31,222 nucleotides of DNA from a virus: the IMG/VR virus record IMGVR_UViG_3300015360_000133, positions 1 through 31,222 of that record; one strand, given 5' to 3'. The position numbers and the translations under genes are program-made. The notes beneath the pieces were generated by a model. The model ran no database searches, was not told the origin of the DNA, and worked only from the letters and a program-made list of their open reading frames with translations. Every line of letters starts with the position of its first letter. Within the stretch, counting starts at the first letter, position 1. Below, one piece after another: positions 1-23,849 of the stretch.

Positions 1-1786
1 AACCAGCGGGTAGGTCGATGTTAGCTGCAACGGCATTGGCGGCCCCTGAGAAAGCCATGCGGGCATGAATCTGCATAGAGTCACCGACGCGTCGCCACAC
101 TCCGGTGTAAGTCGTATTTGTATTGAAAAGCCCAGTCGGAGTGTACGCTACCCAAGGTGTAATTATCGCGCCCGGAACTGTTTGATTAGGACTAACGCTT
201 AAATCAATAACATCAATATCCCACGCCGCCGCAGTCGTGCTCGCGACGTGAAAGATTAGGCGATAATCATTGTTCGCGCTGTTTGGGTAAAACACGCCAG
301 TGTACAGAGTTGTGCTTGTGCTTGCTGCAACAGAGCCATCGCCCGTAAGTGAAGTGACGTTTAGAAGTGTCGCGCCATCGCGGTCATAAACAAACATGCG
401 AACATCGTTGTTCACATAACCCGCTGAAGTTTTATAACGAAACGAAACTACGACGGGCTTAGCTCCTTCATAGTCCGCACGGTCAAGCGTGAAGTCATAA
501 CTCCACCCCTCGCCTTGCTCGTTAACCGCAGTTTTGGACAAGCGTTGCGAACTCGTGCCTCGAAGTGGAGTCGTCGTATTTAAAGCAGCCGCCGTTAAAG
601 AACTTGCCCCGCCCGTGCCATCAACCGGCGTTGCTGCGACGGCGTCGGCGTAGATGTTTATGTCCGCGACCGAATCGCCGGAATAAAGGTCCTGTGCGTA
701 GTTCTTACCCCCGGCCCCGCCGGCCCCAACTTCTTGCTCCAGGCCCGAAGAAGTAAGCTTGTACACCTTGCCGTTTGTTTTGGCGTACATCTTATAGAAG
801 CCCGCCGCCGGATTAGCCGGAGTGCTCGCTTGGTCGTCAAGCACAAGCGTGTTTACGACCGGATCGGTAAAGGTTTTATTCGTGACCGTTTTAGTATTGG
901 TTTCAGTTAACAGCGCCGCGGTGTCGGTTATCCCGTGGATGGCTGTGGTGTCGGCTTCGTGCGCAGTCACGGCGCTAGCTGCGGCGACGGCAGATGCCGC
1001 GGCGTCAGTCGCATACTTCTTAGCTGAGAACTCAACCGTGTCGACCGTACCAGAAGTCTTATTGGCCCAGTCTTTGGCAGAGCCCTTGCCCGCGGTGTTG
1101 TCAACCCCTACGCCGCCGATCGCGTAAGCTCTGGATGAGTTGTCAGTGGCCGCGACAAGTCCCGTGGTCAAGGTTGCCCACTGAGAGGCGAGCGTTGCGC
1201 TGGCGCTTGAGGCCCCAGCTGATGCGGCCGAAGCCGTGGCACTTGCTTGAGCCCCTGAGATATCGGTAGACGTTGGCCAGAGCGTAGTCTCAGCCCAGCC
1301 GTCACCAGCTGCATTCGTAACTGGAACTTTGCTAACTGAGCCAACAATGGTGGCCGGAAGCTCTACGTTAAATAATGCGGTATCAACTTCCTCAGGCAGT
1401 TTGACTGAGCGGCTTAGCTCGTATTGCTGTTGCTGATCAAGCATCGTTAACGTGTCAAACGTATCCTCATGCTCACTTGCGTAGTACGTGCCCTCGTTTC
1501 GAATCTCGGTCGATTGAGTAAGGGTCTTCTTCCTGCGAAGAACGAGCGTGTGTCCAGAAGTGAGGTTTCCCGCCACGAGCGTAATTGTTCCGCCCGAGCT
1601 ATTGCCCACACCCGAAATTGTGTAATCTGTGACATTCGTGAGGACTGTCTTTACCGCTGGGTTCGCGTTTGTAACCTTGATGACCCGCAAGTCCGCCGCG
1701 ACGTCTATCCGAAACGAGAAGCTATACACCGATGTCGCGCCGTTGCCCGTGTACCTGACACTGTCTGTTGCTAAAGATAAGGACAT
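1..1786 (-). CDS. Tail fibre protein, T7 gp17-like N-terminus (3' end beyond window)
   Basis: Receptor-binding fibre attached to the tail. The gene starts with ATG at 1786, nine bases after a clear AGGAG, and stays open for 595 codons to the left edge, so its C-terminus is missing. Residues about 1-135 match the T7 gp17-type N-terminal adaptor that fixes fibres to the tail tube: a beta-rich start, then LRRKKTLTQSTE and a conserved EHEDTFDTLTMLDQQQQYE helix. Next comes an Ala/Ser-rich linker with the SAKDWANKTSGTVDTVEFSA motif common in phage fibre shafts, then the AIHGITDTAALLTETNTKT motif. A beta-sandwich-like domain (from about KNYAQDLYSGDS to WDIDVIDLSVSP) resembles carbohydrate-binding modules. 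The last visible part (YTPTGLF, GVWRRVGDSMQIHARMAFSG) looks like the start of a common C-terminal fibre domain. It lies directly after the giant ejection protein gene, as in T7 where gp17 follows gp16. The adaptor call is strong; the sugar-binding role is inferred. Confidence 0.9.
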   Translation of the reverse strand, partial: MSLSLATDSVRYTGNGATSVYSFSFRIDVAADLRVIKVTNANPAVKTVLTNVTDYTISGVGNSSGGTITLVAGNLTSGHTLVLRRKKTLTQSTEIRNEGTYYASEHEDTFDTLTMLDQQQQYELSRSVKLPEEVDTALFNVELPATIVGSVSKVPVTNAAGDGWAETTLWPTSTDISGAQASATASAASAGASSASATLASQWATLTTGLVAATDNSSRAYAIGGVGVDNTAGKGSAKDWANKTSGTVDTVEFSAKKYATDAAASAVAAASAVTAHEADTTAIHGITDTAALLTETNTKTVTNKTFTDPVVNTLVLDDQASTPANPAAGFYKMYAKTNGKVYKLTSSGLEQEVGAGGAGGKNYAQDLYSGDSVADINIYADAVAATPVDGTGGASSLTAAALNTTTPLRGTSSQRLSKTAVNEQGEGWSYDFTLDRADYEGAKPVVVSFRYKTSAGYVNNDVRMFVYDRDGATLLNVTSLTGDGSVAASTSTTLYTGVFYPNSANNDYRLIFHVASTTAAAWDIDVIDLSVSPNQTVPGAIITPWVAYTPTGLFNTNTTYTGVWRRVGDSMQIHARMAFSGAANAVAANIDLPAG

Positions 1787-1806: not shown

Positions 1807-4800
1807 TTAATTTTGCTTTGGCGACTTACCCGTCAGTACCCCGCGAGCCATATCGATAGGGCCCGAGGGCTCAACATTGTCAGTCATTACGTCTGTTAAA
1901 TATCCAACCGGACGCGCGAGCGGAGCCGCCGGGAATCCGCTCAGCATTCCGACTAAAGTTAGCGCATCCTTGATTGCAGCGCTCGGTTTGCCGTCACCAG
2001 AAAGGGCCCGCGGTACAGTCTTGATTGTCTTAAAGCTTCGCTCGATCATCGAGATGACCGGGCTCACCGTGATCTTGTCGTCAAAGGGCTTGTCATTAAC
2101 GGCGTTAAGGAGTCCGGTCGCAACAGATCCGCCTGGAATCATGGCCGTAAGGAAGCGCATTTGGCTGCCGAACATTACATCCCACGCGTCGTCGAGATAC
2201 TCCCCGTCGTCGTCTTCATCAAAGGCCCCGCCCATAGTTCGAGCAATGAGTGAACCTAATATCGCAGGCGCTGCGACTATGCAGACGTATGCATAAAATG
2301 CACGAGAGGCTCCCTGTTTTAGTCCAAGCTCGCGAGCAATTGAGAACTCAGTCGTAAGTAAATTCACCTGTGTGTTGAAGTAACCGGCAAACATTGTGAA
2401 GAGTCGCTCAAAACCAGAGCCCGCTTCCATGCGAGAGAGGTCCTCAGGGTTCATCCCCATCTGAGTCTCTCTGACCGTAGCGTCGGCAGATCTTACCGAC
2501 TCGCGCTCACTTAAACCCTGCTCAACTGCGTAGTCATATGCACCCGTCCAAGTCACAATTTCCATTACGTTTTGAGTGGCGACTTGAAAGATGTAGCCGT
2601 GCTTTGTGACGAACTCTTTCGCCTTATCGTATGCGTTCGGATTTAAGATCATGTCGTTAATCTCGGACTGAATATCAAAGCTCTGCTTGCCGATTCTAGT
2701 CTTCATGAAGTCTGACTTTTCAGTCACATGCTCGGCCATCAGCCCAGGCTTTCGAACATAGTTAAACTGCGCTCGCATTAAAATTCTTGGGGGAACCCGA
2801 ACTGATGCTGGCGAAATGCCCGTTAAGTTCTGGACCGAGTTGATTACATTTAAAACCATAAGCTGAAGCCCAGCGCGCTTCCTGAGTGTACTCGCCAGAC
2901 GGTCAAAGGCTTTGCCACCGCGGCCTTGCGAGGGAGTGTTGATGGCCTGCTGAGCCGTACGTTTAAGCCATGGCACCAACATGTCCGAGCCAACGCTTGG
3001 ATCAAAGGCCGAGAGCTGGGTTCGAAAGTCCTTGTCCATTACAATATGGCTTACGTCTTTTACTGTGGGCTCAATGTGAATGAACCTTAAGACCTTGTCG
3101 ATATGGCTTTGAACCATGTTGAGGTTCATTACCAACGGAACCGTGTAACCGTCGACTCGAGACTTAGTGAACCCTCGCCCGGTCGTTGGGAACATCATTG
3201 CGTTTTGTAAAGCCTCAAGCTGGTTCTGGTCATTTCTTAGAGCTGCGTCCTCAACGAGTAGCTGATCAGCCATGGCCGGAACATAGCCCCCCCGGTAAGT
3301 ACCAAAGGGAGTCTGAAATTCATTGGCCGTGATCTCGTTAAAGTAAAAGCCGTACATGCGCTTGTGCGCCTTTTGGGCGGGAGCTTTTAGAGTCTCGAGC
3401 AGATCCCACGTACTTTGCAAGAAGTCCATGTCAGGCTTTGTAAGGATTTGCTCTCTAAACATCTGCCCTAAGAATGCATCAAACCGGCTGCGGTTAAGCT
3501 CTCCAGCCTCATCGACCGCGCCCCAGTTTCTGCCCACTAATAGTTTTGTGAGATTCGAATTGTTGCCCATGTGAAGGAGCGCGCCCAAAAGCTCAGCCTT
3601 GTTTTGGAAAGTGTATCCAAGCTGCGTGGCCTCAATCTTCTTGCCATCAAGAGTGTTTGCGATGGGCTTTACGATCTCTCGGAACTTCTCTAAGGTTACA
3701 TTCTTCTCGATCCTGTATCTGGCCGTAGCCTCAAAGATCGGGTTGATAAAGTATTTCGTAAAGGGCCCGCCTCTATCACCGCGATCCATCGCCGTCGCCC
3801 AGTGCTCAACCCTTCGGACCATGGACTTTAAGCCAAGCAGATCAGCCCGAGTCTTCTCCCAGAAGGTGGCTGCCTGCTTGTACCCTGGCCGATCGCCCGC
3901 TCCGCTCTGCTCGTTTAATGCATCGATGAGCTCTTGGCGGACCATGTTGCGGTCCATCTTCTGGCCATCAATTTCAAACTGGCGCGTGGACTTCGAGAGA
4001 TCCCAAAGATTCTTTACGGCCTCGTTCATGTCGTAGAACTGATCAAAGGTCATCTGCTCGAACGTGGCATTTGATTCGGTTGCAGCAAGCACTTGGCTTG
4101 CAATCCCCTGATACATATCCGGGTCGTACTTTTGAATCTTCTCGAGGTAAAACATTGGCGGCTTCTCAGCACTTCCAAGTCCTATGCGCGCAAGGATCGC
4201 TCGTGCCGCATTGACTAGATCCATGTCGCGAGTCTTAGCTAAGTCCTCGTCCTTACGCTTAAGCTTCTTAAAATTCTCTAGAGCCTTTTCCTTGATCTCG
4301 TTAGCCCCTAAGGCCGCTCGGTATAGCTCATGATTTAAAAGCTCGCGGCGCTTAGCTTCGAATGCCTTTTGAAGATCCCCGCGAGTGAGAGCGTCGCCAG
4401 CCTCTTTGGCAGCATTGCGCTCAGCACGCATGAAGACGCTCGGACGGATCTCCGTTAATCGCTTCTGACCAATAAGAGTCTGGGCTTGCTTTCGAACTTC
4501 ACCCTCAGGTGGCACGCGGCGAACACCTTTTCGAACCACGTCCTTCAGAGTTGGCAGTTCTTCTGAGGCTAAGTATTCAAGCTCTAACCTAAGGAGCTTT
4601 GATCTCGGCTCGTTATGAACCGCATCCTGAGCCTGCTTCTTTACGGCGTCAGGATTGTTGATCAGATCCGGATAAAACTTATTCATGTGGTTATCAGTGA
4701 GCCGCTCAATGAGATCATCTTTTTTCTCAGCACGCCCAAGTTCAGCTAAGAGCTTCGCGCCATTTTCAAACCCCAGCATTTCCGCTGCGATATCTGGATG

Positions 4801-7800
4801 AAGCCCGCCCTTACCGTCCTTCTCTTTGATGCTGATCCCACGGGGCAGGGCCTTGACCATGTCCTTATCGAAGTAAGCATTCAGAGCTTCTTTTGAAAGC
4901 TTAATCTGATCAGTCTTTAGAATATCGAGCGCGCGGTAAATCGGCATAAGACCGACTTCCACCGCGATGCGGTCCCGGTTTGCTTGGCGCTGTTCCTTGT
5001 AGAACACTTCCCGTTGCTTTCGAAAATGCTCCATGAATTTATTTAAGAGTGTGTTGTATGCGTAATCCTTCGCTGCAGTCGTGGCCTTGCGATAGCGCTC
5101 GGCCTTCGCGCCCGTAAGCCCAAAGGTCTCTGGGTTCTCGCCAAAGAGCGGGGTAATGTTCTGCTCTGCTTGCGCTTGAGCGATCTCGGCTTCAGTCGCA
5201 ATCATTCGGGCGAACACGTCTTCAATCTCAGGACTTAGAGTGATTCCGTAGGGGCTAAGGGATTTATAGATATTAATCAGCCACACGCGAAACTTCGCGA
5301 ATACTTCCTGGAGCGCAGAAGTTGGAGCCTTACCCGTCATGAAGAAAGTCTCAGCCGCTTCAGCGAGCTTCTCATGTTGAGCCACGGTCATTGATTCAAC
5401 AGAATCTGCTTCAACGAAATCGAGCAGGGTTTTAGCATCCTTAAGAAATTGAGTTTGTGCTGGCGTAAGCGTTGCCGGGTCCAGGCTTCGGAAGTAATTG
5501 AAGTCGTCCCGCATCTCGAAAACGAAAGCATGCATTGATTCATGAAGAAGAGTTGAAACATCAGCCTTCGGCCCAAGTTCGATTAGTCTCTTGACCGCGT
5601 CGATCCTGAAGCGACCGCGGGCGGATTCCGCGTTCTGGCCGGCTTGAGCGAGAATCAATGCGGAATCGAGATCTTTAAATTGAGCGTTCACCGAGCGGAC
5701 CTGCTGTGGCTGGAAGACTGCGGCTACATCGATGGTCTCGGGATCTTCGCCACGGTAGCCGCTGAATGCAGGATCTTGTGTGTTCTTAAAAATTACGCCG
5801 TCGTAACCAGCTTCTTGTGCGCGCTCTAGAATCTCGCGGTAAGTTACCTCGCGATAGTCTGCGCCTTGAAAATCTACAATCAAGGGACGAACCATCTTTA
5901 AAACTGTTGGGTAAACAACCTGACCCTCAGTGCCTTCGAGGTTCTTAGAGAGCCTAGCTTTCATCTCGGAAAGTTCCGCTTTGGAATCCTTTATGCTGGC
6001 CTTTAGGTTCTTCTCTGTGTTCTCCGCAATCCGCGCCGTAAGTCTATCAACCACAGACTGAACGCTCGTAGGAGACTCGTAAAAGACATACTTTCTGTCA
6101 TCATCTTTATCGGATAAGTGGGGATTTACAATCTTCTCACCCGTTGAGCGATCGACCACATTGTAATTTCGACCGTCCGACGACAGGACCCAGTCTTTAT
6201 TTTCGAGTAGAGCTTTGCGCGCCTCGAGATATTTTGCGGTCTTCGCGTTTTCTTCAGCTACCGCGCCAGTTTTAAGATCCTTCTCCATCGACTGCAGCGA
6301 GACTTTGCGCTGCTCGATCTTATATTTTAGCCATTCAATTTTATGGGCGGCCGACTCCTGAGAGGCGGCGTAGTCTTCCATAGATTGCTTAAACTGTTTG
6401 GCAATACTTGCGCGCTCGGCACGCTCTTCCGTCGAAAGCTTTGAGGTCCACTTCGCCCCATACTTTTCCTTCATTCGTGCCTTGAATGCATCACTTGCGC
6501 GCGTGGCCTCGGCTTCTGTGCGTGCAGACCTGAGGGTGAGCGCATCGTCTGATGCCTCTGCATATTCGCTTGCCGTTACGGGAGATGATGCAAAGAAGTG
6601 GGCCATGCGCGCAGAGCCCGCTCCAGTGGAGGCGCCGAGCGTGTCGCCTGAAAATGATTCAATGTTCGCGCGCGAACCGTGGAACCATTGGTGACTTACG
6701 TCAAAGCCTGCACGTTTGGCGCGCTTTAGACGCTCGCCTTTAATCGTTGGAACGTCCTCAGATCCACTAATGACTTCGCGGTGATATCCGTCATCTGAGA
6801 ATTCGAGGTTAAGCTCTTTACCAGTAGCCTCCTCAATTGCTTGCTTGATGCTTTCTGCGGAGGTTTTTTGAGTTCCTTCGCGCACAGCGCCCTGGAAGAA
6901 GGCGTCGCCCTTTTGGACGGTTTTGACATCCCGCTTAAAATCGTCTATATTTACAGATTGAGGCCTTGCCTCGCCCGCTGCCTCGGTCCCAATTTCGGTT
7001 TGGTGAGCTCCGGCAGTGGGAGTTTCTTTCTCGATCGCAAACTTATCATAGAACAATTTGCCGTTAGACTCGCGCGCTACAATCTTGACGACGTACTCTT
7101 TTGTCGGCGTAGACATTGGAGCATAGAAGATTCTCAGTTTGTTGTCGTGGCCGGTGCTGTCTTCTTCTGTTCTTGAATAAACGGCAGACGCAATCAGCTT
7201 ATCCAGGTTGGCTAACGCCAATCGGTTACCGTCTGAGGCGAGCGTTGAACTCGCTTTACCCAAACCCCGGCGCTTTACCTCTATGGTCCATCCCGTATGG
7301 GAGTTGACAAAACTTTTGCCAGTGAACTGAGCTTTAGCTCCATCGCGAACTTGGGCCATGTCGCCGACTGCGTCTTCAACATGTACGACAGGAACCTGAT
7401 CAGGATAAGGAATCTCGGTTTGAAATGGTCGATCCTCACTACCCTGCTCGAAGCTCTGCGAATCGCTAGGCGCATCAGGGCTCATCTCCTGAAACGGGAG
7501 CGGGTTATTCTCAAAGAACTCTCTCTGGTTTTCGCCCCGAAGATTGGCCCTGACTTCGTTGCGGCCGGATTGCATTTCGGCAAATGCTTCGATCTGTTTT
7601 TGGGAAATATTCATCTGCTGGCCGGTAAAGCCTGACTGCTGTATCACTTGAGTTAGCTGCTCGATGATTCGGCTCTTAACCCCTTCGCGCTCTGAAGGCT
7701 CCGCTTGAACGGGCTCGGCTTCACTAGCCTTTAAAGCTTCAGCCTCAATGGCTTGAGCTTCTTCTTGTTTTAAGATCTTAATTTCGTTTACGGACTGACC

Positions 7801-9339
7801 CTCAGGGCTAAAGCGAATGTCGTCAGCTAGGCCCTGATAGTGGGCAGTTCCTGCAACCTTATGAGCCCATGTAGCTAGAGGGACCTTGATGTCGCCGCCT
7901 GTTTCCTTTGCCTCGTTGTACGCTTCAAGCACGCCGATCTCTTGCATGGCGGCCGTAGGGCTAACCTTGGCACTTTGAAAGTAGGCGTCCATGCGCTCAA
8001 CGGGGATGTAGATATTCTCAACAGGCCCGCCCTGAACTAGCTGCTCCACATATTTACGCTGAGATTCCGGTAAGCGCTTACGAAGCTTCGTAGCTTCGAG
8101 GTTTTCTTCCATGGACAGATAGAAGTTCTTCACCTGTTGCGCTCGGTGTGCGCCCGCCTGGTGATTTAAAGCAGCAGCCGGTGCGGTCATCCCGCCACCC
8201 GAAGCTGCGCCAATTAAGCCAGCGTTGATCGCGCGCTCGCCCATGCCGGTCATCGCATCGGGATTAACGCCAGTTATATAGTCAGTCGAATCTTGAGCGA
8301 CACTCGTAAGGCCTTCTTCTGTGGCCTCGCCAAGGATGCTTTGCGTGAGTGTCTTCATGTAGGCGCCAACGACTTCCTTAGAAATCTGTTTGCCATACTG
8401 TTTGGATAGGGCCTTCTCCCAAGTCTTTAGGAACCCGAGAGTACCCAAGGACTCAAAGCCCGCCTCGAAGGCGCCCGTCGCGAGTGCGTTAGGTAAACCA
8501 ATTGTTGGATCAATACCCGCCTTTAGGTTCTCAGCGTTCTTAGCCGCGGCACTTGTAGCGCCCGCTCCCGCGAGACCTGCGACACCAAAGCCCGATAAAG
8601 CGCTCGCCAGTAATAAGACTTGTTGAGGTGAGTTGGCAATGGTTTGGGCAAGTAGTGCTTTGCCTGCGCCCGAATAGTTCCCGGTCTTAATCTCTGCAAC
8701 CATGCTTTGCGAGAGCTCAGGCGCTTGATCCCGAAAGGTCTTCGCGTCCGCTTCGTACTTTTGAGTGACTGCATTGTTTTGGCCTAAGAAGGTCTGGTCC
8801 GAAGTCACACGAACGTTTCGACCAATAAGCTGATTAAGCTTATTTTGAGGCCAAGCGGCAGTATCATAAGCTAGGGCCGGAAGCTTACTAACGTCAGCAT
8901 TGAGCTGCGCCATTCCAGTTCCAACCCAATTACGAACACTTTCCATAAAGCCATGATCTTGAACCACGTCTTCAACCTTCTTCAGGCTTTGGATGTCATC
9001 TCTCGCAACGGCCGCGTTGTCAGGCTCCTGCATGAACTTCGCTAGTGCCGGGGTAGATTTAAACTCTTCTGCATAGTTCTTCGTAGTGATGACTTTTTTC
9101 TGAAGCTCATCAAAGTTCTGCTCGACAAATCTAGCTGGAAGGTTCTGTTGTTCTGAAAGCTTTAAAACTTCAGCGTGACGGTCTGGATCTCGATCAGCGG
9201 CAACGAACATGGACTGCTTAAGCTGAGCGCTATTGTCTATGTCCTCTTCTTCAAACACCTGATCATAGACATTCTTAGGAGCGAGGTCCCGTGTAGGCGT
9301 TGCCTCATCTTCATTATCAATGAAGTCGTATTTATCCAC
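1807..9339 (-). CDS. Giant polyvalent protein (2510 aa), gp16-position ejection protein with ART-like and zincin-like domains
   Basis: It occupies the place of the T7 gp16 internal virion protein, between a gp15-like gene and the fibre, so it is probably packaged and ejected with the DNA. Start is GTG at 9339, overlapping the previous stop by 8 bases. Visible parts: an acidic N-terminus with a VAADRDPDRHAEVLKLSEQ stretch typical of phage polyvalent proteins; hydrophobic Ala/Gly-rich segments near 220-265 and 365-390; a large polyvalent protein-associated domain 3 (LPD3)-like segment near 675-770; an ADP-ribosyltransferase (ART)-like domain with WFHGS near 885-889, HFFASSPVTASEYA near 914-927 and YDGVIFKN...VAAVFQPQQVRSVN near 1179-1218, its halves separated by a charged helical insert; an HESMH zincin motif near 1266-1270; a long helical second half; and a hydrophobic segment near 2347-2371 followed by DEDDDGEYLDD. 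I saw no lytic transglycosylase signature of T7 gp16. Domain names are motif recognition only; enzymatic activity is unproven. Confidence 0.85.
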   Translation of the reverse strand: MDKYDFIDNEDEATPTRDLAPKNVYDQVFEEEDIDNSAQLKQSMFVAADRDPDRHAEVLKLSEQQNLPARFVEQNFDELQKKVITTKNYAEEFKSTPALAKFMQEPDNAAVARDDIQSLKKVEDVVQDHGFMESVRNWVGTGMAQLNADVSKLPALAYDTAAWPQNKLNQLIGRNVRVTSDQTFLGQNNAVTQKYEADAKTFRDQAPELSQSMVAEIKTGNYSGAGKALLAQTIANSPQQVLLLASALSGFGVAGLAGAGATSAAAKNAENLKAGIDPTIGLPNALATGAFEAGFESLGTLGFLKTWEKALSKQYGKQISKEVVGAYMKTLTQSILGEATEEGLTSVAQDSTDYITGVNPDAMTGMGERAINAGLIGAASGGGMTAPAAALNHQAGAHRAQQVKNFYLSMEENLEATKLRKRLPESQRKYVEQLVQGGPVENIYIPVERMDAYFQSAKVSPTAAMQEIGVLEAYNEAKETGGDIKVPLATWAHKVAGTAHYQGLADDIRFSPEGQSVNEIKILKQEEAQAIEAEALKASEAEPVQAEPSEREGVKSRIIEQLTQVIQQSGFTGQQMNISQKQIEAFAEMQSGRNEVRANLRGENQREFFENNPLPFQEMSPDAPSDSQSFEQGSEDRPFQTEIPYPDQVPVVHVEDAVGDMAQVRDGAKAQFTGKSFVNSHTGWTIEVKRRGLGKASSTLASDGNRLALANLDKLIASAVYSRTEEDSTGHDNKLRIFYAPMSTPTKEYVVKIVARESNGKLFYDKFAIEKETPTAGAHQTEIGTEAAGEARPQSVNIDDFKRDVKTVQKGDAFFQGAVREGTQKTSAESIKQAIEEATGKELNLEFSDDGYHREVISGSEDVPTIKGERLKRAKRAGFDVSHQWFHGSRANIESFSGDTLGASTGAGSARMAHFFASSPVTASEYAEASDDALTLRSARTEAEATRASDAFKARMKEKYGAKWTSKLSTEERAERASIAKQFKQSMEDYAASQESAAHKIEWLKYKIEQRKVSLQSMEKDLKTGAVAEENAKTAKYLEARKALLENKDWVLSSDGRNYNVVDRSTGEKIVNPHLSDKDDDRKYVFYESPTSVQSVVDRLTARIAENTEKNLKASIKDSKAELSEMKARLSKNLEGTEGQVVYPTVLKMVRPLIVDFQGADYREVTYREILERAQEAGYDGVIFKNTQDPAFSGYRGEDPETIDVAAVFQPQQVRSVNAQFKDLDSALILAQAGQNAESARGRFRIDAVKRLIELGPKADVSTLLHESMHAFVFEMRDDFNYFRSLDPATLTPAQTQFLKDAKTLLDFVEADSVESMTVAQHEKLAEAAETFFMTGKAPTSALQEVFAKFRVWLINIYKSLSPYGITLSPEIEDVFARMIATEAEIAQAQAEQNITPLFGENPETFGLTGAKAERYRKATTAAKDYAYNTLLNKFMEHFRKQREVFYKEQRQANRDRIAVEVGLMPIYRALDILKTDQIKLSKEALNAYFDKDMVKALPRGISIKEKDGKGGLHPDIAAEMLGFENGAKLLAELGRAEKKDDLIERLTDNHMNKFYPDLINNPDAVKKQAQDAVHNEPRSKLLRLELEYLASEELPTLKDVVRKGVRRVPPEGEVRKQAQTLIGQKRLTEIRPSVFMRAERNAAKEAGDALTRGDLQKAFEAKRRELLNHELYRAALGANEIKEKALENFKKLKRKDEDLAKTRDMDLVNAARAILARIGLGSAEKPPMFYLEKIQKYDPDMYQGIASQVLAATESNATFEQMTFDQFYDMNEAVKNLWDLSKSTRQFEIDGQKMDRNMVRQELIDALNEQSGAGDRPGYKQAATFWEKTRADLLGLKSMVRRVEHWATAMDRGDRGGPFTKYFINPIFEATARYRIEKNVTLEKFREIVKPIANTLDGKKIEATQLGYTFQNKAELLGALLHMGNNSNLTKLLVGRNWGAVDEAGELNRSRFDAFLGQMFREQILTKPDMDFLQSTWDLLETLKAPAQKAHKRMYGFYFNEITANEFQTPFGTYRGGYVPAMADQLLVEDAALRNDQNQLEALQNAMMFPTTGRGFTKSRVDGYTVPLVMNLNMVQSHIDKVLRFIHIEPTVKDVSHIVMDKDFRTQLSAFDPSVGSDMLVPWLKRTAQQAINTPSQGRGGKAFDRLASTLRKRAGLQLMVLNVINSVQNLTGISPASVRVPPRILMRAQFNYVRKPGLMAEHVTEKSDFMKTRIGKQSFDIQSEINDMILNPNAYDKAKEFVTKHGYIFQVATQNVMEIVTWTGAYDYAVEQGLSERESVRSADATVRETQMGMNPEDLSRMEAGSGFERLFTMFAGYFNTQVNLLTTEFSIARELGLKQGASRAFYAYVCIVAAPAILGSLIARTMGGAFDEDDDGEYLDDAWDVMFGSQMRFLTAMIPGGSVATGLLNAVNDKPFDDKITVSPVISMIERSFKTIKTVPRALSGDGKPSAAIKDALTLVGMLSGFPAAPLARPVGYLTDVMTDNVEPSGPIDMARGVLTGKSPKQN

Positions 9340-11005
9340 CCAGGGCCTTGCCCTTCAAGTAACGGTTAACGATGTCTTTGCGTGACGGCTCTTTGCCGTA
9401 TTTGCGCTTAAAGCGTTCAACGATTTGCTCTTCATCTTGCTCGGGCACGACAACGTCCTCGACCTTACTCGGGTCAGTTACCTCAAAGGCCTTGGCTTTC
9501 GTGTCCCAGATCCAACCCTTATCCGTCACAACATCGATTAGAAGCGGCTTGCCGAGTTTTCGAAGCTCGTCATTCGTGACCTTCTTGCCCGTGCGCTGTT
9601 GATGTTGTTCAACGAGTCGATCAAGGGTTTCGCGGTATTTTTTAGCGCCGTCCTTCTTTGGATTTACACCGGCCTCAACGAGCATATTGTCGACGGTTTC
9701 CTTGTCAGATAAGAAGCCATCAAATTTGGCCTGAACCTTCTCGTCGCCCTCAGCAAGTGCCGCCTTATCATCTATATACTGTTTGAAGTGCGGCTCTGAA
9801 AGCAGGTTGCGATACTTACTCGAGGCCTCTCTTAAGTATTTTGGGCGCGTAGCCGGATTCGATAATCCAAGTTTTAACTCTTCGTAGGTGTCCCAGTCTG
9901 TGATCGTTGGATCTTTCTTCGCCTGCATATGGCGAAATCTTTCTTGATCTTCAGGGGGAAGTGAAGAGAAAAGAGGCGTGGGAATAGCTTCAAGCTTTCG
10001 CCCGCCCTTAGAGAAAAGCGAATACGCTCGGGCCTCATTTTGGTCATCATTAAGCCTCTTTGCGCTGGCACGATCTCCAAACCGCTCCTTCACTCGCCGT
10101 CTAGTTTCGTCCTGAAGCTTTGGGTCTTCGATTTTATCAACGTCTGCAAGGGCTTGATTTAGGCTCCCGTATTTACTGGCAATGGAGAGGGACTGACGCT
10201 GACTCTCACCGCGGATCGATCCTTCTTCTAAGGCCTTCTCTAAATTGGCGGCAGTCTCACCGCGAAAGCTAGACTTGTTTTCATCAAAGTATTTCTTAGC
10301 ATCTAAGTCGTCGCCGTTTGAAAGCATGCGGTCAACAATGCCTGCGTGAGTGCGGCTCGTCTCTTCTTCCATTCGCTCTTGAACAATCGGGTCATTATCT
10401 GAAAGCCCCGATCGGGCAGCCCAGCGAAGTATTGTTCCGGCTTTCGCATCAAGAGCAAGTTGTCGCTTTTCAGGATCATGGAAATTTGTGACGGCGTCGT
10501 CGTGTGCTGCAGACAGTGCAGCCTTCGTCGTGTCCTCATCGTACACCTGGCTCTCTCTCGAAACGTGGCGCTGGATGTCTCCATCAAATGCGACCATGTG
10601 ACCCTGAGCAATTTTGTTTGCGGCCTGGCTTTGAGACTGAGTCGAAAGGCTCTTCTTATATTCTTCAACTTCAGTATTAAACTTACCCAGATATTCGTCA
10701 GGCGCACTAAAGGCATCCTGACCCTTGCGAGTCATCAATCCTTCTTTTGGATCATAAATCAGCTTATTCTTAAGCTGCGTCACTTTCGTATTGAAGTCCG
10801 TAAGGAGGAGCTCATCAGCCTTGGCCCGCTCTTCGGCAAAGATCTTTTGAGATTGATTAAACAAACCGTTTGAAATCTGCTGCGATTCTTGGAATGCACG
10901 GCCTCCACCGAAGGAGTCAGCGGTAGCGCCGCCGTCAATCCTTACATTAGGAGCTGCCGTAGCTTGAACCTGTTGCTGATTAAACTTAGGAACGGTTATG
11001 CCCAC
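9332..11005 (-). CDS. Internal virion (ejection) protein, gp15-position
   Basis: A 557-residue, mostly helical, highly charged protein without signal peptide or membrane segment. It starts with GTG at 11005, overlapping the stop of the preceding gene by 10 bases, and its stop overlaps the start of the giant polyvalent gene by 8. The N-terminus (VPKFNQQQVQATAAPNVRI) followed by FGGGRAFQESQQISNGLFNQ and long helices with repeated FNTKVTQLKNKLIYDPKEGLM-like units is typical of ejection proteins found between the gp14-like and gp16-like genes of short-tailed phages. The C-terminus (FKRKYGKEPSRKDIVNRYLKGKALGG) resembles the short linear segment many phages carry here. By position it should form part of the channel through the cell envelope during DNA entry, as T7 gp15 does. 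Sequence similarity to T7 gp15 itself is not evident, so the role rests on order, length and helical character. Confidence 0.75.
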   Translation of the reverse strand: MGITVPKFNQQQVQATAAPNVRIDGGATADSFGGGRAFQESQQISNGLFNQSQKIFAEERAKADELLLTDFNTKVTQLKNKLIYDPKEGLMTRKGQDAFSAPDEYLGKFNTEVEEYKKSLSTQSQSQAANKIAQGHMVAFDGDIQRHVSRESQVYDEDTTKAALSAAHDDAVTNFHDPEKRQLALDAKAGTILRWAARSGLSDNDPIVQERMEEETSRTHAGIVDRMLSNGDDLDAKKYFDENKSSFRGETAANLEKALEEGSIRGESQRQSLSIASKYGSLNQALADVDKIEDPKLQDETRRRVKERFGDRASAKRLNDDQNEARAYSLFSKGGRKLEAIPTPLFSSLPPEDQERFRHMQAKKDPTITDWDTYEELKLGLSNPATRPKYLREASSKYRNLLSEPHFKQYIDDKAALAEGDEKVQAKFDGFLSDKETVDNMLVEAGVNPKKDGAKKYRETLDRLVEQHQQRTGKKVTNDELRKLGKPLLIDVVTDKGWIWDTKAKAFEVTDPSKVEDVVVPEQDEEQIVERFKRKYGKEPSRKDIVNRYLKGKALGG

Positions 11006-11577
11006 GACGTACCCGACCCAGATCTACGATCGTTGCGGGCTTCCTTGCGAGTGGTTGTGTCTCGCTCGTCTTTTTCCTTTGCTCTGTTCTCTTTGTAAGA
11101 CCCATAGGCCGAGAGCGCATTCCCAGCAGCCCTCATGCCGCCGTTAATGAGGGTCTGACTCGCCTGAGTTCTAGCCGTGAGGCTTGCAAACTCACCCTGG
11201 CTTTTAATGTTTGTCGCCTGAGTTCGGTAACCCCAAGCCTCTCTAACCGCGTTGTTCCTGATCGTGAGCGCATCTTGAGCGGCTACGAGCTCAGTGTCTT
11301 GTTGCATCTGAGCGGCACTTCCAGAACCTACGTCAACCCCACTTGCCGCGGCAGCTGCGCGCTGTGCTCCAACCTTAGCCCGAGTCTCTTTTTGTAAATC
11401 GCGAACCGCGCCCTCACCACGTTTTGAAGCGTCGCTAGCCTGCTCGTTTGCAAGAGCCGAGTTCATCTGAGCCATCTGCCGCTGATAACTTCCTTGGGCC
11501 TTTATCGATTCAGACTCTGAGTATGCGCTCGCAGCATCTGCTGTGCCCTGCATTGCAAAGCCGCCCGTTGATCCCAT
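10996..11577 (-). CDS. Internal virion protein, gp14-position
   Basis: A 193-residue Ala/Gln/Ser-rich helical protein. The ATG at 11577 shares one base with the stop of the tail nozzle gene (TAATG), with GGGGGC just upstream. A longer reading to 11679 is possible but would run inside the nozzle gene, so I chose the overlap start. The N-terminus (MGSTGGFAMQGTADAASAYSE) is mildly hydrophobic and is followed by long amphipathic helices with GAQRAAAAASGVDVGSGSAAQMQQDTE. This pattern is shared by many phage proteins lying immediately after the nozzle gene, including the T7 gp14 class, where the small protein is the first to leave the virion and enters the outer membrane. The C-terminus is very basic and charged (KEKDERDTTTRKEARNDRR). 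Function is inferred from position and composition. Confidence 0.75.
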   Translation of the reverse strand: MGSTGGFAMQGTADAASAYSESESIKAQGSYQRQMAQMNSALANEQASDASKRGEGAVRDLQKETRAKVGAQRAAAAASGVDVGSGSAAQMQQDTELVAAQDALTIRNNAVREAWGYRTQATNIKSQGEFASLTARTQASQTLINGGMRAAGNALSAYGSYKENRAKEKDERDTTTRKEARNDRRSGSGTSWA

Positions 11578-14453
11578 TACTGCCCCCTTAAAGGAAATAG
11601 TCCAGCCGGTGCGACGGCAAGGATTGATGCCGGAAGCGGGTCGACTTGTCTGATAAATATGCGGCCACTCGAGTTCCACTCAGGCCTAATCGCTACGGAC
11701 ACGACTCCGGATTTTAAAGCAGTCGGATCATCGTAGCTCTCGTCATCCCGGATCTTTGGCTCGGTCAGGTTCTCAAGCGGATCAACTGAGTCATCAGTGG
11801 GAGGTTTGGGCCCAACCCAAAGACCGCGAGACTTTTCAACGAACATGGTAACTTTTGAAACGTACTTGTTCTTATCCACCATGGTCTCGCCCTGAGCCGT
11901 GTCGATGTCGAGAGTCTCAATGTCAGAAATATACGGAAGGCCTACGTGTATTAGTCCGTAGCACTTAGATAAGGTGACCACGCCATTCGCTACCGTGAGG
12001 GGTGTTCCGTAAGTTGGGTTATTCGGTGAGGCTTCAACGAAACCGTCGCCTAGCACGCTGACCTTCTTGCCCTCAAGATGAGATAGAAGTGTCAACTCAT
12101 CAACAGCCTTAGTCCAAGAAGTCGTTGCCGAAGACCGCGAGGCGACCGGAACTAGGCGGTCAACCGTACCAGTCACAACCGTTGTGCTCGTATAGGCTTG
12201 GATGCTAAAGCGAAACAAAAGTCCATCAACATTGGTGAAGTGGATCTCGTTGCCAATGTCTGTGGTTTTAAAGTAACTAGCGCTTGAGGTCATAGTCAAA
12301 GTTTCGTGAGCGTCCCATGTGGTCCCGCCAGAAATTGTCATAGTCGTGGCGCTTACGTTGCGGCCGTCATACGTGAGGCTTGAATCCATGAAGATGGAAT
12401 CCTCTACTGCATCCTCGTCAACGAAGCGAGAGTTAAGTCGTTCGATATAGCGTTTGGTTACTCCGTTAATCGTTCGATTCACGACTAAGTAAAGAGCGTC
12501 CTCGTTCCCTTCAGGGATCACGCACACATTTTCAACTAGCCCGCCACTTAAGTCATGACGATGCCATGCAATGATGTCTTGATCTTTGACGTACGTTAAC
12601 CCCAAGAGTGCGCCGTCATCTCTAACAATCCATACGATCGAATTTGGAACCTGCTGGAACGCCCAATCCACAACCGTGAAACCTTCGAATAAATGCGAAG
12701 AGAACACCGTCAGGTCGTTGCCCTTGTATCCATCAATGGAGAAATCAAACGTTAAATCCCTAATGATCGAACCACGGGCTTGAACGTAGAGCGCATTACT
12801 GCCTACAACGAGCGGAGCAATCTTGCTCGCACCGTGATAGGCGTGCTGCTTGGGATTAATCCCGGCCGGTGTCAGCACTCCGTTTGAATCTCCCAGCGCT
12901 GCCCACTCTCCTGCGTTCGTGAGTATGACAAGGTTGCCAAGGTCAAGTAGGTGCCTGATCTCGTTGACTTGTTTTCCGGCAATCGTGAATGCGATTGAAT
13001 CGTCATCCGCAGCTGGTGAGTGATATGTAAACTTAGAATAGAATCCAGTCTTCGAAAGCCAGATTCCTTCAGGTTCATTCGTCGAGTTGGCGTAGCATTG
13101 ACGCTGTTGAAAGAATCCAATCACACTAGGGTAAGCGCCAGCGCCATCAAAGATTGCGCGGTCTTCTGGCAGAGTATCCGTAAGCTCTGGGAAAAGCCCC
13201 ACGTCGAGAAAGTTCACGGTCGAAGCGCCGTCGAGAGGGGCCGCCACACCTAAGAAGCCATAAACTCCATTGCTTTCTAGATAAACGTTATACTCTTTAA
13301 CTCTCAGGACTACGTCCCAAGTAATTGAGATCGCATTCGTTGGCGAAAGAACTGAGCGGATTGGAGCGTTGTGAACTGTGCAAACATTGCGGTATGCAAG
13401 AGCAATCCCGCCAAAACCAACCCAGGCCCCAAAGCCTGTTGTGTTGTATGCGACTTCGAATGTGTTTGGAGCAAAAACTAGTGTGACCGTGTAATACCCC
13501 AAGGGCATGGAGTTGTTTGCCCAATGAAGATCTTTATTTAAATAGACGGAGTCACCAGGTTGAAATTGATGATTAAAGGAAGTAGTGAATTGAACCGGAT
13601 TTGCAGCAGTTCCGGTCGTGATAGTTCGGAGAAGCTCTATGCCCGGCTCTGATTCCTCTAACGTATCTTCAGCCACGCAAGTGACCTTGTAGCGCCACGT
13701 CTTTGCGCCCGCTGTTGGAGTCGTTGCCGACGGCGCAGGGGGAAGAATTGAAGATCCGGAAAAGCTTATATTAGAAAACGCCCAGTTCGTGTTGGTTGTT
13801 CGACTAAGTCTCGCGGGCGGATACGACGAATGAACAATGGTTATTACGTCCGCACTTTGCGTGAACTGTATGTCTGCAAGCTGAAGCTCCGTATATACCG
13901 AAACGCGCTCATAGACTCTGGCGGCAGTTCCGGCACTTGTATATGTCCCATATGAAGTTGTGTTGACATTAGCGCCCGCAACCGTAGTTAGCTGGAACGT
14001 AGTAGCCGTCTTGTTCGCGACAACGAAGTAACGACCATTGACCTCAGTCATGCCGACTATGTCTTTGATATAAACCCATTGATCATTTTCAAAGACGTGG
14101 GCCACGGAAGTTGTCACCACTCCAGGGTTGGCATTCGTAATGCCGGTTATGATCTTGGCGGTCTCTAATACTGGAGCCCCATCAATATGAAAGCGCACGT
14201 AGAGGTCGCCAAACTCTAGGACTATCGCCTGATCATTACTGAAGACGAACGGAATAAGCCTCACTGCTTTGCTTGAGCTCTTAACTTCCTGAACGTAACT
14301 AGTGCCTGGCCTGTTCGCGGCACCCCCACTTTTTTGAATTACGGTATTTACGCATTGACGAAGACCGCTCTGGTATCTGCTCGTGTCAACTCTTGATCTT
14401 AGAGCCGGAGCAATCTCGCCTGCCGAAAATGATTTCTGCGAAAACGTACTCAA
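11577..14453 (-). CDS. Tail tubular protein B / nozzle protein (gp12-like)
   Basis: A large (958 aa) beta-rich virion protein expected to form the tail nozzle below the gatekeeper ring. The N-terminus FSQKSFSAGEIAPALRSRVD, then RYQSGLRQCVNTVIQKSGGAANRPGTSYV, is the hallmark of this family (a FSAGE-P-L--R-D--RY--GL--C-N-----GG--NRPGT pattern). Around residue 190 LQLADIQFTQSADVITIVHSSYPPARL and later YPSVIGFFQQRQCYANSTNEPEGIWLSKTG are also typical. The start is TTG at 14453 with AAGGGAG eight bases upstream; no ATG fits. It lies 3 bases after the tail tubular A gene and shares a base with the next gene, so the three are probably translated together. The length is above that of T7 gp12 (about 800 residues), which may reflect extra surface domains. 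Family assignment is confident; the exact structural role follows from T7-like phages. Confidence 0.88.
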   Translation of the reverse strand: MSTFSQKSFSAGEIAPALRSRVDTSRYQSGLRQCVNTVIQKSGGAANRPGTSYVQEVKSSSKAVRLIPFVFSNDQAIVLEFGDLYVRFHIDGAPVLETAKIITGITNANPGVVTTSVAHVFENDQWVYIKDIVGMTEVNGRYFVVANKTATTFQLTTVAGANVNTTSYGTYTSAGTAARVYERVSVYTELQLADIQFTQSADVITIVHSSYPPARLSRTTNTNWAFSNISFSGSSILPPAPSATTPTAGAKTWRYKVTCVAEDTLEESEPGIELLRTITTGTAANPVQFTTSFNHQFQPGDSVYLNKDLHWANNSMPLGYYTVTLVFAPNTFEVAYNTTGFGAWVGFGGIALAYRNVCTVHNAPIRSVLSPTNAISITWDVVLRVKEYNVYLESNGVYGFLGVAAPLDGASTVNFLDVGLFPELTDTLPEDRAIFDGAGAYPSVIGFFQQRQCYANSTNEPEGIWLSKTGFYSKFTYHSPAADDDSIAFTIAGKQVNEIRHLLDLGNLVILTNAGEWAALGDSNGVLTPAGINPKQHAYHGASKIAPLVVGSNALYVQARGSIIRDLTFDFSIDGYKGNDLTVFSSHLFEGFTVVDWAFQQVPNSIVWIVRDDGALLGLTYVKDQDIIAWHRHDLSGGLVENVCVIPEGNEDALYLVVNRTINGVTKRYIERLNSRFVDEDAVEDSIFMDSSLTYDGRNVSATTMTISGGTTWDAHETLTMTSSASYFKTTDIGNEIHFTNVDGLLFRFSIQAYTSTTVVTGTVDRLVPVASRSSATTSWTKAVDELTLLSHLEGKKVSVLGDGFVEASPNNPTYGTPLTVANGVVTLSKCYGLIHVGLPYISDIETLDIDTAQGETMVDKNKYVSKVTMFVEKSRGLWVGPKPPTDDSVDPLENLTEPKIRDDESYDDPTALKSGVVSVAIRPEWNSSGRIFIRQVDPLPASILAVAPAGLFPLRGQ

Positions 14454-14456
14454 AAG

Positions 14457-15062
14457 CTACTCCCTTGTCGTTATGAATTCGGAGTCCGGAGTCTCATCTC
14501 TTTGCTCTTCGTTCATCGCCGAAGCCTTAGCGCTGTTGATCATCCACATATATTGCTGGTGCGCTTGAGCGCCCCTTTTAAAAGGGTCGCCCGCCGTGAT
14601 TGCCGGTGCAATGTAGTGAGCAAGTAAGAATGAAATGGCCAAGACGAAGTCCTCAGGCCATTGTTCAACAGTTTCGTTATAATAAATAAACTCCGCGACC
14701 GCTTCGGGCTCGTCCGTTAAGACTACCTTTGCCTCATCAATCGTTGCGATCTTGTAACGGATCCTTGATTGGAGCGTGTCGTTTCTAGTCCCGCTTAAAA
14801 TGCGAATCAGGTCCAGACACCCAGATGGATATGCATAGGAGTAATCCCACTCATCCGTTGGGTTTGCCTCTATCAATCCAAGTGACTCTAGTTTAAGTGC
14901 GAATGGCCACTCGTACGCCCTAAAGGTGGACTTCAATACGGTTTCATAAAACGTTCTACAGCTCCTGGCCTCCTGGCTCTGCTCGGTATCGAGGTTCGAT
15001 ATCGTCGTGCCAATGCCTAGATGCCCAAGAGCCATATTACAAATTGAAGTTTTTGAAGCCAC
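14457..15062 (-). CDS. Tail tubular protein A / gatekeeper adaptor (gp11-like)
   Basis: A 201-residue helical adaptor that would sit between portal and nozzle. The opening ICNMALGHLGIGTTISNLDTEQSQEARSCRTFYETVLKSTFRAYEWPFA matches the gp11/tail tubular A family, in which a helical start (N-AL--LG----I--L-E-S--A--C---Y---R---L----W-FA) is highly conserved. It continues with WDYSYAYPSGCLDLIRI, the usual Y-YP-DC---R/I signature. GTG at 15062 is the chosen start, with AAGGGG six bases ahead. Its stop is 3 bases before the nozzle start codon, matching the A-B gene pair of T7-like phages. Confidence 0.88.
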   Translation of the reverse strand: MASKTSICNMALGHLGIGTTISNLDTEQSQEARSCRTFYETVLKSTFRAYEWPFALKLESLGLIEANPTDEWDYSYAYPSGCLDLIRILSGTRNDTLQSRIRYKIATIDEAKVVLTDEPEAVAEFIYYNETVEQWPEDFVLAISFLLAHYIAPAITAGDPFKRGAQAHQQYMWMINSAKASAMNEEQRDETPDSEFITTRE

Positions 15063-15859: not shown

Positions 15860-16852
15860 TTACGCTACGACTGCTTCGGTCTCTAGAATAGAATCGCAAA
15901 TCTTCACAGGGATTCCGCGGAAGCTTACTGCAGGCATTCCATCAGACTCTTTGTAAGAAAGCTGTCCACCAGAGATCACGTCATCACGGCGCTGAATGTC
16001 GAGCATCTGAACAACAGAGCGGCTGGCATAAAAGCAAGGCTTGCCTTTGCTCAAGTTCGGAATGCGGTGAGTAGCCTTAATCATGAGCTCAATAAGATCA
16101 GCAGCTGATGACTTCGCAACGAGGTTAGACACGTCGATGTTCGGGATACGAACAACATAGCGCCAATCCTTCAACACGAGGCCAAGCTTCCACTGCCACA
16201 AATCAAGATACGCACGGAAGCGGTTATTGCTTGCATCAAATGCATCAGCAAGTCCTAGATCTTCATGCACGAGTCCTGCTTGTGAGCCTTTAGGAAAGAT
16301 ACCGTGAACGGTGTCTTCGCCCCAGCAAACGAGCCAGATCGAGCTGTTGTCAGATCCAGCGCCCGCACCAGTGATGATGTTCTGAGCGTTGGTGGCAGAC
16401 AAAGAAGAGTAGCGAGCGGCGAGGCCCGTGAACTCTTCCGGAGCAGTCGAGCTGTTTCCGTAAATGAGGGTCTGAGAAGCTTCCTGAGACATTGCTTCAA
16501 CGAAGGGCTTAGCTTCACTCAAGCGAAATGCGCCGAGGTCAGATGCAAGGCTAGCTAAGTCTTTATCAACCTGGCTTCGCGCTTCCATCATACCGCAAGC
16601 TTCATCAACTTGAGCCGTAGTGCTCTTTGAATTCGCCACGCCCTGGTTCATCAAGCGCCAGTAAACTGCCGGTAAGCCAGTTCGGATGTTGGTGCGGTGA
16701 CCAGTAACGAGGTTTCCTTCCATGAAGGCAATGTCTTCGATCATGGGGTTAGCTACTTCGAGCAGCTCCACGATCTTGCCGATTTTTCCAGACGGGTCTA
16801 AACGCTTTGCGTGATCCGCAAGCGTTAACAGGTTAGTTCCAATAGTCGCCAT
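15860..16852 (-). CDS. Major capsid protein (BPP-1 Bbp17-like)
   Basis: A 330-residue protein of the right length for an HK97-fold major capsid subunit. Segments such as LLTLADHAKRLDPSGKIGKIVE, LLEVANPMIEDIAFMEGN and HRTNIRTGLPAVYWRLMNQGV are characteristic of capsid proteins of BPP-1-like and related podoviruses. Later come SLASDLGAFRLSEAKPFVEAM, then FTGLAARYSSLS and a C-terminal region with SRSVVQMLDIQRRDDVISG followed by FRGIPVKICDSILETE, the usual ending. It follows the scaffold gene and precedes the cement gene. ATG at 16852 has AGGAG just upstream, and a compact GC-rich hairpin lies immediately before that ribosome-binding site. Confidence 0.92.
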   Translation of the reverse strand: MATIGTNLLTLADHAKRLDPSGKIGKIVELLEVANPMIEDIAFMEGNLVTGHRTNIRTGLPAVYWRLMNQGVANSKSTTAQVDEACGMMEARSQVDKDLASLASDLGAFRLSEAKPFVEAMSQEASQTLIYGNSSTAPEEFTGLAARYSSLSATNAQNIITGAGAGSDNSSIWLVCWGEDTVHGIFPKGSQAGLVHEDLGLADAFDASNNRFRAYLDLWQWKLGLVLKDWRYVVRIPNIDVSNLVAKSSAADLIELMIKATHRIPNLSKGKPCFYASRSVVQMLDIQRRDDVISGGQLSYKESDGMPAVSFRGIPVKICDSILETEAVVA

Positions 16853-23520: not shown

Positions 23521-23849
23521 TATTGCCCGAGCAGTGTCTTTCCTTGACCAGCTCCGAGCGTTGGCGCTCCGCCATATCCAGTATCTCCAGCAGGACCAGA
23601 GAGAATCGTACCGGCACGATCAGACTTAACGCCCTTTTGCCGGATGCGAGCGGCGTCTTGAGAGGCTTGGACTCCTGCACGTTCCGAGTCATCCTCGGCC
23701 CTTTTACGGTTACTCGCTTGATCGCCCTTTGTTCTATTTAACGCCTGCGAGCCAAGTCTTTTTTGTTGGGATGCGTTCTCAACTGCGGCCGTAGTGCCAG
23801 CCGCTGCTACAATCGCCCCAATGATCGCGACCGTTGACGTTGCAGCCAT
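23520..23849 (-). CDS. Small phage protein with N-terminal hydrophobic helix, ending KTLLGQ
   Basis: A 109-residue protein: an Ala-rich hydrophobic N-terminal segment (VAIIGAIVAAAGTTAAV) that could be a membrane helix, a charged helical middle (NRKRAEDDSERAGVQASQDAARIRQ), and a Gly-rich end with RAGTILSGPAGDTGYGGAP and GKTLLGQ. The TIL---G--G--------KTLLG tail is a pattern I recognise from small proteins next to portal genes in BPP-1-like phages. Its ATG shares a base with the stop of the acetyltransferase gene (TAATG) and its own stop overlaps the portal start. Function is unknown; a virion or assembly role is plausible. Confidence 0.7.
   Translation of the reverse strand: MAATSTVAIIGAIVAAAGTTAAVENASQQKRLGSQALNRTKGDQASNRKRAEDDSERAGVQASQDAARIRQKGVKSDRAGTILSGPAGDTGYGGAPTLGAGQGKTLLGQ

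What the first reader, a model, noticed from the sequence alone, without database searches (positions are those of the whole stretch)
1807..9339. 2510-residue polyvalent ejection protein with ART-like, zincin-like and LPD3-like parts
Polyvalent proteins are known as phage- or plasmid-delivered fusions of effector domains that act early in the host. Here one sits at the T7 gp16 position and seems to replace the lytic transglycosylase type of leader. Seen: WFHGS and FFASS blocks, HESMH, and an LPD3-like region; inferred: delivery into the host with the genome.
Basis: partly seen in the sequence, partly recalled or inferred. Interest (0 to 1): 0.65.

Follow-up and report, generated by a model that had tools for sequence, protein, structure and literature searches.

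The report
Phage injection protein with swappable effector
This is a giant protein that a short-tailed phage very probably injects with its DNA: two constant ends, one carrying a built-in protease motif, hold an interchangeable middle that here looks like an enzyme for chemically tagging host molecules.

Summary
The 2,510-residue ORF is real (minus strand, GTG at 9339, stop at 1807). It lies directly after T7 gp11/12/14/15-position genes and before a tail-fibre-position gene. Pfam places LPD22 (aa 42-130), LPD3 (664-764) and a two-piece ART-PolyVal (886-1220, split by a helical insert). An HExxH zincin-type motif (1266-1270, plus E1323/E1330) is invariant in 39/39 members. The ART model matches known ARTs. 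The protein does not 'replace a transglycosylase leader': in this family that enzyme sits in the gp15-position neighbour.

New here: relatives (328 confirmed in IMG/VR; 73 measured) share one layout: a constant ~590-aa N domain, a variable slot of 26-2051 aa (650 here), then a constant zincin plus ~1,120-aa helical body. Slots carry ART, RNase, Zeta, GNAT, ParB or RES domains. Two phages 92-95% identical in the ends have different slots. Three members have almost no cargo yet keep the zincin motif.

Polyvalent proteins and zincin processing were proposed in 2017, so this is a new member of a known kind with an unusually clear cassette layout. Packaging, injection and enzyme activity are untested.

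The parts
1807..9339 (-). CDS of the giant gp16-position protein, 2,510 aa (P0001)
   Evidence: PHROG 9880 over residues 11-2507
7579..9339 (-). constant N-terminal domain, aa 1-587, with a hydrophobic stretch at aa 241-259
   Evidence: 593-position HMM hits all 73 N-complete members; hydropathy
8950..9216 (-). LPD22, aa 42-130
   Evidence: Pfam PF18834, E 2.7e-16; in 15 of 17 members scanned
5629..7578 (-). cargo slot, aa 588-1237 (650 aa here)
   Evidence: 0 of 55 relatives align to aa 801-1100 by BLASTP; cargo length 26-2051 aa across 73 members
7048..7350 (-). LPD3, aa 664-764
   Evidence: Pfam PF18798, E 2.4e-15
6508..6687 (-). ART first half, aa 885-944: H887 (FHGS), aromatic F915, Y926
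   Evidence: Pfam ART-PolyVal; alignments
5947..6507 (-). mainly helical/coiled-coil insert inside the ART, aa 945-1131
   Evidence: AF2 model mc8a33d386cbd: long helices plus short strands
5680..5946 (-). ART second half, aa 1132-1220, with invariant D1180 (GYDGV)
   Evidence: iterated ART HMM 47 bits; D invariant in 22 of 22
5185..5628 (-). zincin-type metallopeptidase domain, aa 1238-1385
   Evidence: invariant H, E, H and two downstream Glu in 39 of 39
5530..5544 (-). HExxH motif HESMH, aa 1266-1270
5350..5376 (-). second-helix motif, aa 1322-1330 (E1323 and E1330 invariant)
1810..5184 (-). constant mostly helical C-terminal body, aa 1386-2510
   Evidence: 48 or more of 55 relatives align over aa 1251-2500; AF2 mean pLDDT 80; VIA top rows include T7-type core/ejectosome chains
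9332..11005 (-). gp15-position neighbour, 557 aa, no recognisable peptidoglycan hydrolase
10996..11679 (-). gp14-like internal virion protein
   Evidence: Pfam PF24072 T7_gp14, E 1.2e-10
11577..14453 (-). tail tubular/nozzle (gp12-position) protein
   Evidence: PHROG 376, E 1.8e-200
14457..15062 (-). tail tubular A (gp11-position) protein
   Evidence: PHROG 394, E 1.6e-42
2..1786 (-). tail-fibre-position gene (gp17 position), cut by the window end
   Evidence: position and open frame only; no Pfam family over cut-off

Best explanation
The protein is the gp16-position ejection protein of a BPP-1/AF-like podovirus, built as a chassis with a slot. Inferred: it is packaged in the head core with the gp14- and gp15-position proteins and ejected before or with the DNA. 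Its constant N domain and constant helical C body help build the conduit across the envelope, and the slot between them carries an interchangeable effector into the cytoplasm. Here the cargo is LPD3 plus an ADP-ribosyltransferase that would modify a host macromolecule early in infection, as T4 Alt does. The zincin just downstream of the slot probably cuts the polypeptide, freeing the cargo and perhaps also remodelling the ejection proteins. Shown: gene order, domain content, constant ends with a variable slot, cargo replacement between near-identical phages, and invariance of the metallopeptidase motif. Inferred: packaging, ejection, NAD+ chemistry, targets and cleavage.
For: Gene order and T7_gp14/tail PHROG matches. 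ART-PolyVal, LPD3 and LPD22 over Pfam cut-offs; ART-fold matches spanning the whole model, MbcT 6fkg Z 7.5, NatT 8qnq Z 7.3, tankyrases about Z 7. N domain in 73 of 73 complete members, cargo 26-2051 aa, HExxH-to-end length 1092-1424 aa, mostly 1200-1390. Slot contents by Pfam over 52 members: ART in 24, and DUF7178, GNAT, PBECR1/3/5 RNases, Zeta toxin, ddrB-ParB, RES and LPDs in others. L093 and L097 are 95.5% identical in aa 1-667 and 92% in the C part but have unalignable 780- and 1135-aa slots. HExxH and two Glu invariant in 39 of 39. In the VIA comparison of the C body, T7-type core/ejectosome chains rank 1, 2 and 5 of 939. Iyer et al. 2017 (PMC5512222) proposed zincin processing of polyvalent proteins. 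A giant DarB-like protein, last in a 196-aa, 510-aa, 4515-aa series of virion genes, is in virions of podovirus JC1 by mass spectrometry (PMC9144972).
Against: Z values for the C body against T7-type core chains are only 5.5-6.8, below the usual line for helical proteins, and profile-profile scores are weak (P 0.03-0.06). Foldseek alone gave nothing at E <= 0.001 for either model. Three members (L011, L018, L044) have almost no cargo yet keep the zincin motif, so cargo release cannot be its only role. The ART's strand-2 aromatic is Phe where most have Tyr, and the ART is split by about 187 residues. No virion proteomics for a demonstrated homologue was found.
Confidence: 0.7

Rival explanations
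1. The zincin works in entry itself (it cuts ejection proteins to switch the conduit state, or host envelope proteins), and the cargo merely rides along without being released by it.
For: HExxH and downstream Glu are kept in the three members with essentially no cargo and with every cargo type; the zincin is contiguous with the constant C body, not with the cargo.
Against: It always sits directly at the downstream edge of the slot (about 28 aa from slot end to HExxH), where a release protease would be expected; Iyer et al. 2017 find zincins as the hub linking unrelated effector domains (PMC5512222).
Confidence: 0.4
2. The ART is degenerate or structural: the split domain with Phe at the strand-2 position no longer catalyses, and the middle is a spacer.
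For: The window ART scores weakly (33.5 bits whole protein, 30.5 as a segment), carries a long insert, and has Phe for Tyr.
Against: H887 and D1180 are kept; the strand-2 column holds F, W or I as well as Y in relatives; other relatives also carry inserts at the same place (L029, L049, L056); the model matches ART folds over its whole span.
Confidence: 0.2
3. It is an ordinary gp16 of T7 type whose middle has simply diverged.
For: Position and weak structural similarity to T7-type core proteins.
Against: No SLT domain; known effector families in the slot; clean cargo replacement between 92-95% identical flanks.
Confidence: 0.05
4. The protein is not ejected but acts inside the producing cell (assembly scaffold or late host modulation).
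For: No direct virion data for this family were found in the papers held.
Against: Conserved last position of the internal-virion gene series in the annotated relatives examined; JC1 gp69, a giant DarB-like protein in a comparable position, is virion-associated; N4 gp50, also last of a small-mid-giant series, is ejected.
Confidence: 0.1

Closest known systems
Polyvalent proteins of phages (Iyer et al. 2017, PMC5512222)
   Same: Several unrelated domains in one chain, LPDs, ART of the H-Y-D type, HExxH zincin, virion-gene context
   Different: Here a single fixed layout (constant N domain, slot, zincin, constant C body) at the gp16 position, with cargo replaced between near-identical phages; this layout was not found described in the papers searched
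Bordetella phage BPP-1 Bbp10 and Pseudomonas phage AF gp16 (annotated 'crystallin beta/gamma motif' or hypothetical)
   Same: Homologous zincin plus C body, N domain, same operon position
   Different: Shorter chain with a different, shorter slot; a lytic enzyme is annotated in the gp15-position neighbour (transglycosylase in BPP-1 bbp11, structural lysozyme in AF)
T7 gp16
   Same: Last gene of the internal virion series before the tail fibre; possible shared C-body fold (VIA rank 2 for T7; phiM1 and E1004 core chains ranks 1 and 5)
   Different: T7 gp16 is 1318 aa with an N-terminal endolysin/transglycosylase part; no LPD, ART or zincin is known in it
N4 gp50 virion RNA polymerase
   Same: Giant ejected protein whose enzyme part is followed by an HExxH domain and about 1,270 residues to the C-terminus, similar to about 1,245 here
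   Different: Cargo is an RNA polymerase; homology of zincin and C body not established (hhalign P 0.012, but one of 25 shuffles scored higher; VIA Z 3.9)
T4 Alt
   Same: Head-packaged, injected ADP-ribosyltransferase (PMC9503650)
   Different: Another ART family and not part of a gp16-position protein

Membership tests
Polyvalent protein (Iyer 2017) | Two or more unrelated domains including LPD/enzymatic domains in one polypeptide | tested here: met
   LPD22, LPD3, ART-PolyVal over Pfam cut-offs, plus HExxH domain
Polyvalent protein (Iyer 2017) | Delivered into the host with the DNA | not testable with these tools
   Only gene position and analogy to JC1 gp69 and N4 gp50
Zincin-like MPTase | HExxH on one helix and a Glu on a following helix | tested here: met
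   H1266, E1267, H1270, E1323, E1330 invariant in 39 of 39; both lie in helices of the model
Zincin-like MPTase | Zincin fold | tested here: inconclusive
   No Pfam zincin model hit; best PDB sequence match Spartan at E 0.065 with HExxH aligned; the domain was not fold-searched by itself
ART-PolyVal (PF18760) | Score over curated cut-off | tested here: met
   33.5 against 31.2 bits for the whole protein in two stretches; 30.5 when only the slot segment is scanned
ART-PolyVal (PF18760) | H, Y, D active-site residues (Iyer 2017) | tested here: inconclusive
   H887 and D1180 kept; strand-2 aromatic is F915; the column also holds F/W/I in relatives; assignment of columns to the triad is from alignment only
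ART superfamily | ART fold | tested here: met
   Full-span VIA matches to MbcT, NatT and tankyrases, Z 6.8-7.5, 107-140 residues, 3.3-4.8 A; model pLDDT only 70 and Foldseek alone missed them
LPD3 and LPD22 | Score over curated cut-off | tested here: met
   57 and 60 bits against 27 and 28.6
T7 gp16 family | Last internal-virion gene after gp14 and gp15, before the tail fibre | tested here: met
T7 gp16 family | N-terminal transglycosylase (SLT) domain | tested here: not met
   No SLT match in the protein or among the 17 members scanned
T7 gp16 family | Homologous C-terminal body | tested here: inconclusive
   VIA Z 5.5-6.8 at ranks 1, 2, 5; hhalign 31.7 against shuffle maximum 29.1, P 0.03
N4 vRNAP family | T7-type single-subunit RNA polymerase domain | tested here: not met
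   No polymerase match by Pfam or PHROG

The most novel reading that the evidence does not exclude
A large family of podovirus ejection proteins is a true delivery platform: a constant N domain and a constant zincin/C body, with an exchangeable effector slot that phages swap by recombination at fixed borders, the zincin cutting the effector free in the host; N4's virion RNA polymerase would be one special cargo on the same kind of chassis.
Probability: 0.3. Interest if true: 0.8.

Novelty: new member of a known kind. Interest (0 to 1): 0.5.

Why it matters
It gives the polyvalent-protein idea a concrete anatomy that can be tested in culturable relatives (BPP-1, AF, Caulobacter, Vibrio and Xanthomonas phages): what is constant, what is swapped, and where the borders lie. 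Naturally cargo-swapped and cargo-less members are ready controls for asking what the embedded metallopeptidase does and whether the cargo reaches the cytoplasm. It also corrects uninformative labels ('crystallin beta/gamma motif', 'lysin') carried by many of these proteins.

Tried and rejected
Single-protein IMG/VR scan found nothing; the 17-member alignment was too divergent to search with; a 4-member alignment worked. PADLOC: no hits in any slot. Megablast of the structural region against phages: no match. PDB sequence search with the C-body profile: only chance-level hits. Foldseek alone against PDB: no match at E <= 0.001 for either model. Homology of the C body to T7 gp16 and to N4 gp50 by profile comparison: suggestive registers (GGYVP with GTYVP; HExxH with HExxH) but not significant, so not claimed. 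The idea that the zincin replaces the missing peptidoglycan hydrolase was dropped because relatives carry both. The Bcep22 record was not held under the accession tried, so homology of JC1/Bcep22 giant proteins to this family is untested beyond the tblastn search, whose listed records do not include them.

Full report
OBSERVATION. The reported ORF is real but lies on the minus strand (GTG at 9339, stop at 1807; 2,510 aa), with its start overlapping the end of the upstream gene by 8 bases. The window is a 31,222-base virus record. Upstream, in the direction of transcription, come tail tubular A (14457-15062), tail tubular B (11577-14453), a T7_gp14-family protein (10996-11679) and a 557-aa gp15-position protein (9332-11005); downstream is a cut gene at the tail-fibre position. 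This is the T7 gp11-12-14-15-16-17 order.

DOMAINS. Pfam gives LPD22 at 42-130, LPD3 at 664-764 and ART-PolyVal in two stretches. An iterated ART profile shows why: the ART is split, FHGS...HFFASS...EYA at 886-944 and VVYPTVLKMVRPLIV...GYDGVIFKN...QQVRS at 1132-1218, with a mainly helical insert between. H887 and D1180 are kept; the strand-2 position has Phe where most relatives have Tyr, though the column also holds F, W and I. An AlphaFold2 model of 866-1232 (mean pLDDT 70) aligned over its whole span with ADP-ribosyltransferase folds: MbcT Z 7.5, NatT Z 7.3, many tankyrases near Z 7, 3.3-4.8 A; most other rows in that list match only the coiled coil. Foldseek alone did not find these.

ZINCIN. 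HESMH is at 1266-1270. Across 39 divergent members the two His and the Glu of HExxH and two Glu of a following helix (E1323, E1330) are invariant, the pattern Iyer et al. describe for polyvalent-protein metallopeptidases (PMC5512222). No Pfam zincin model matched; the best solved-structure sequence match is Spartan at E 0.065 with HExxH on HExxH. So the motif is firm and the fold likely but not shown.

FAMILY AND SLOT. Relatives: 44 GenBank phage records and 328 IMG/VR stretches, with prophage relatives frequent in Betaproteobacteria. A BLASTP coverage profile over 55 non-redundant relatives is sharply two-ended: about 27-39 align over aa 51-520, none over 801-1100, and 48-55 over 1251-2500. 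A profile of the N domain hits all 73 N-complete members, its end lying in most at about residue 550-680, so the slot can be measured: 26 to 2,051 aa, median 907, 650 in the window; the part from HExxH to the C-terminus stays within 1,092-1,424 aa. Pfam over 52 slots finds ART in 24 and, in others, DUF7178, GNAT, PBECR1/3/5, Zeta toxin, ddrB-ParB, RES and LPDs. The cleanest case is L093 against L097: 95.5% identical over aa 1-667 and 92% over the C part, but with a 780-aa stretch in one and an unalignable 1,135-aa stretch in the other. Among pairs with 60-70% C-part identity, 30 of 100 have mostly unalignable slots. Many of these pairs share ancestry, so the counts are not independent events.

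C BODY. The AlphaFold2 model of 1236-2435 (pLDDT 80, pTM 0.65) is almost all helical. Foldseek alone found no match. In the VIA comparison T7-type core chains rank 1, 2 and 5 of 939 (8vb2 phiM1 Z 6.8; 9jyy T7 Z 6.3; 9vvp E1004 Z 5.5), N4 gp50 rank 32 (Z 3.9). These Z values are within the range of chance for helical proteins; that the top rows are phage ejection proteins makes a real relationship plausible but unproven. Profile-profile comparison with a T7 gp16 family gave 31.7 against a maximum of 29.1 in 25 shuffles, but a C-terminal sub-comparison was not above shuffles. N4 gp50 has 1,272 residues from its HExxH to the end, close to the 1,245 here.

TRANSGLYCOSYLASE. In the 17 aligned phages the gp15-position gene carries SLT (11), M23 (1) or GH108 (1); in the 30-member set closer to the window at most 9 have a recognisable hydrolase. 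No SLT was found in the giant protein of the 17 scanned. So the peptidoglycan hydrolase is a trait of the neighbouring gene, it is missing or unrecognised in the window, and the zincin is not its substitute since other relatives carry both.

MECHANISM. Most likely: packaged in the core, ejected with the gp14/gp15-position proteins, cargo carried to the cytoplasm, ART modifies a host molecule early. Zincin cutting of the chain is a published proposal that fits its place at the slot's edge, but three members with 26-49 aa of linker in place of cargo keep the same catalytic residues, so it probably has some duty besides cargo release. Physical support for packaging comes only from analogues: JC1 gp69, a 4,515-aa DarB-like protein preceded by 196- and 510-aa virion proteins, is found in virions by mass spectrometry (PMC9144972), and N4 gp50 is ejected (PMC12633501).

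NOVELTY. Polyvalent proteins, their ARTs, LPDs and zincins were described in 2017. The only paper in the searched library that names LPD22 is that one. What this work adds is the measured chassis-and-slot layout at the gp16 position and a near-identical pair with swapped cargo. Not all papers are in that library, so priority is not claimed.

Noticed in passing
window 9332-11005 (-): The gp15-position protein lacks any recognisable peptidoglycan hydrolase, unlike most GenBank relatives; no virion-borne cell-wall enzyme was identified among the window proteins scanned.
   Followed up: partly
window 15860-16852 (-): Major capsid protein matches Pfam GP7 (430 bits), while the internal virion genes are of T7 type.
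   Followed up: no
window 26373-27449 (-): N6/N4 DNA methylase gene next to the terminase small subunit gene.
   Followed up: no
window 24279-24854 (-): Aspartyl/asparaginyl beta-hydroxylase (cupin) gene, with an acetyltransferase-like gene (23849-24331) beside it, in the head region.
   Followed up: no
L172-L179 and similar T7 relatives: Several T7-like gp16 proteins match T7 only from residue about 144-159 on, so their N-terminal transglycosylase part looks replaced or lost.
   Followed up: no
L093:8746-17220 and L097:2716-12258: Two phages with 92-95% identical ends and unalignable slots; both cargos have ART-like parts by Pfam, the second below cut-off.
   Followed up: yes
L015:2066-4435: In this relative the gp15-position gene is annotated as an M23 peptidase instead of SLT, so the cell-wall domain there looks exchangeable too.
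   Followed up: partly
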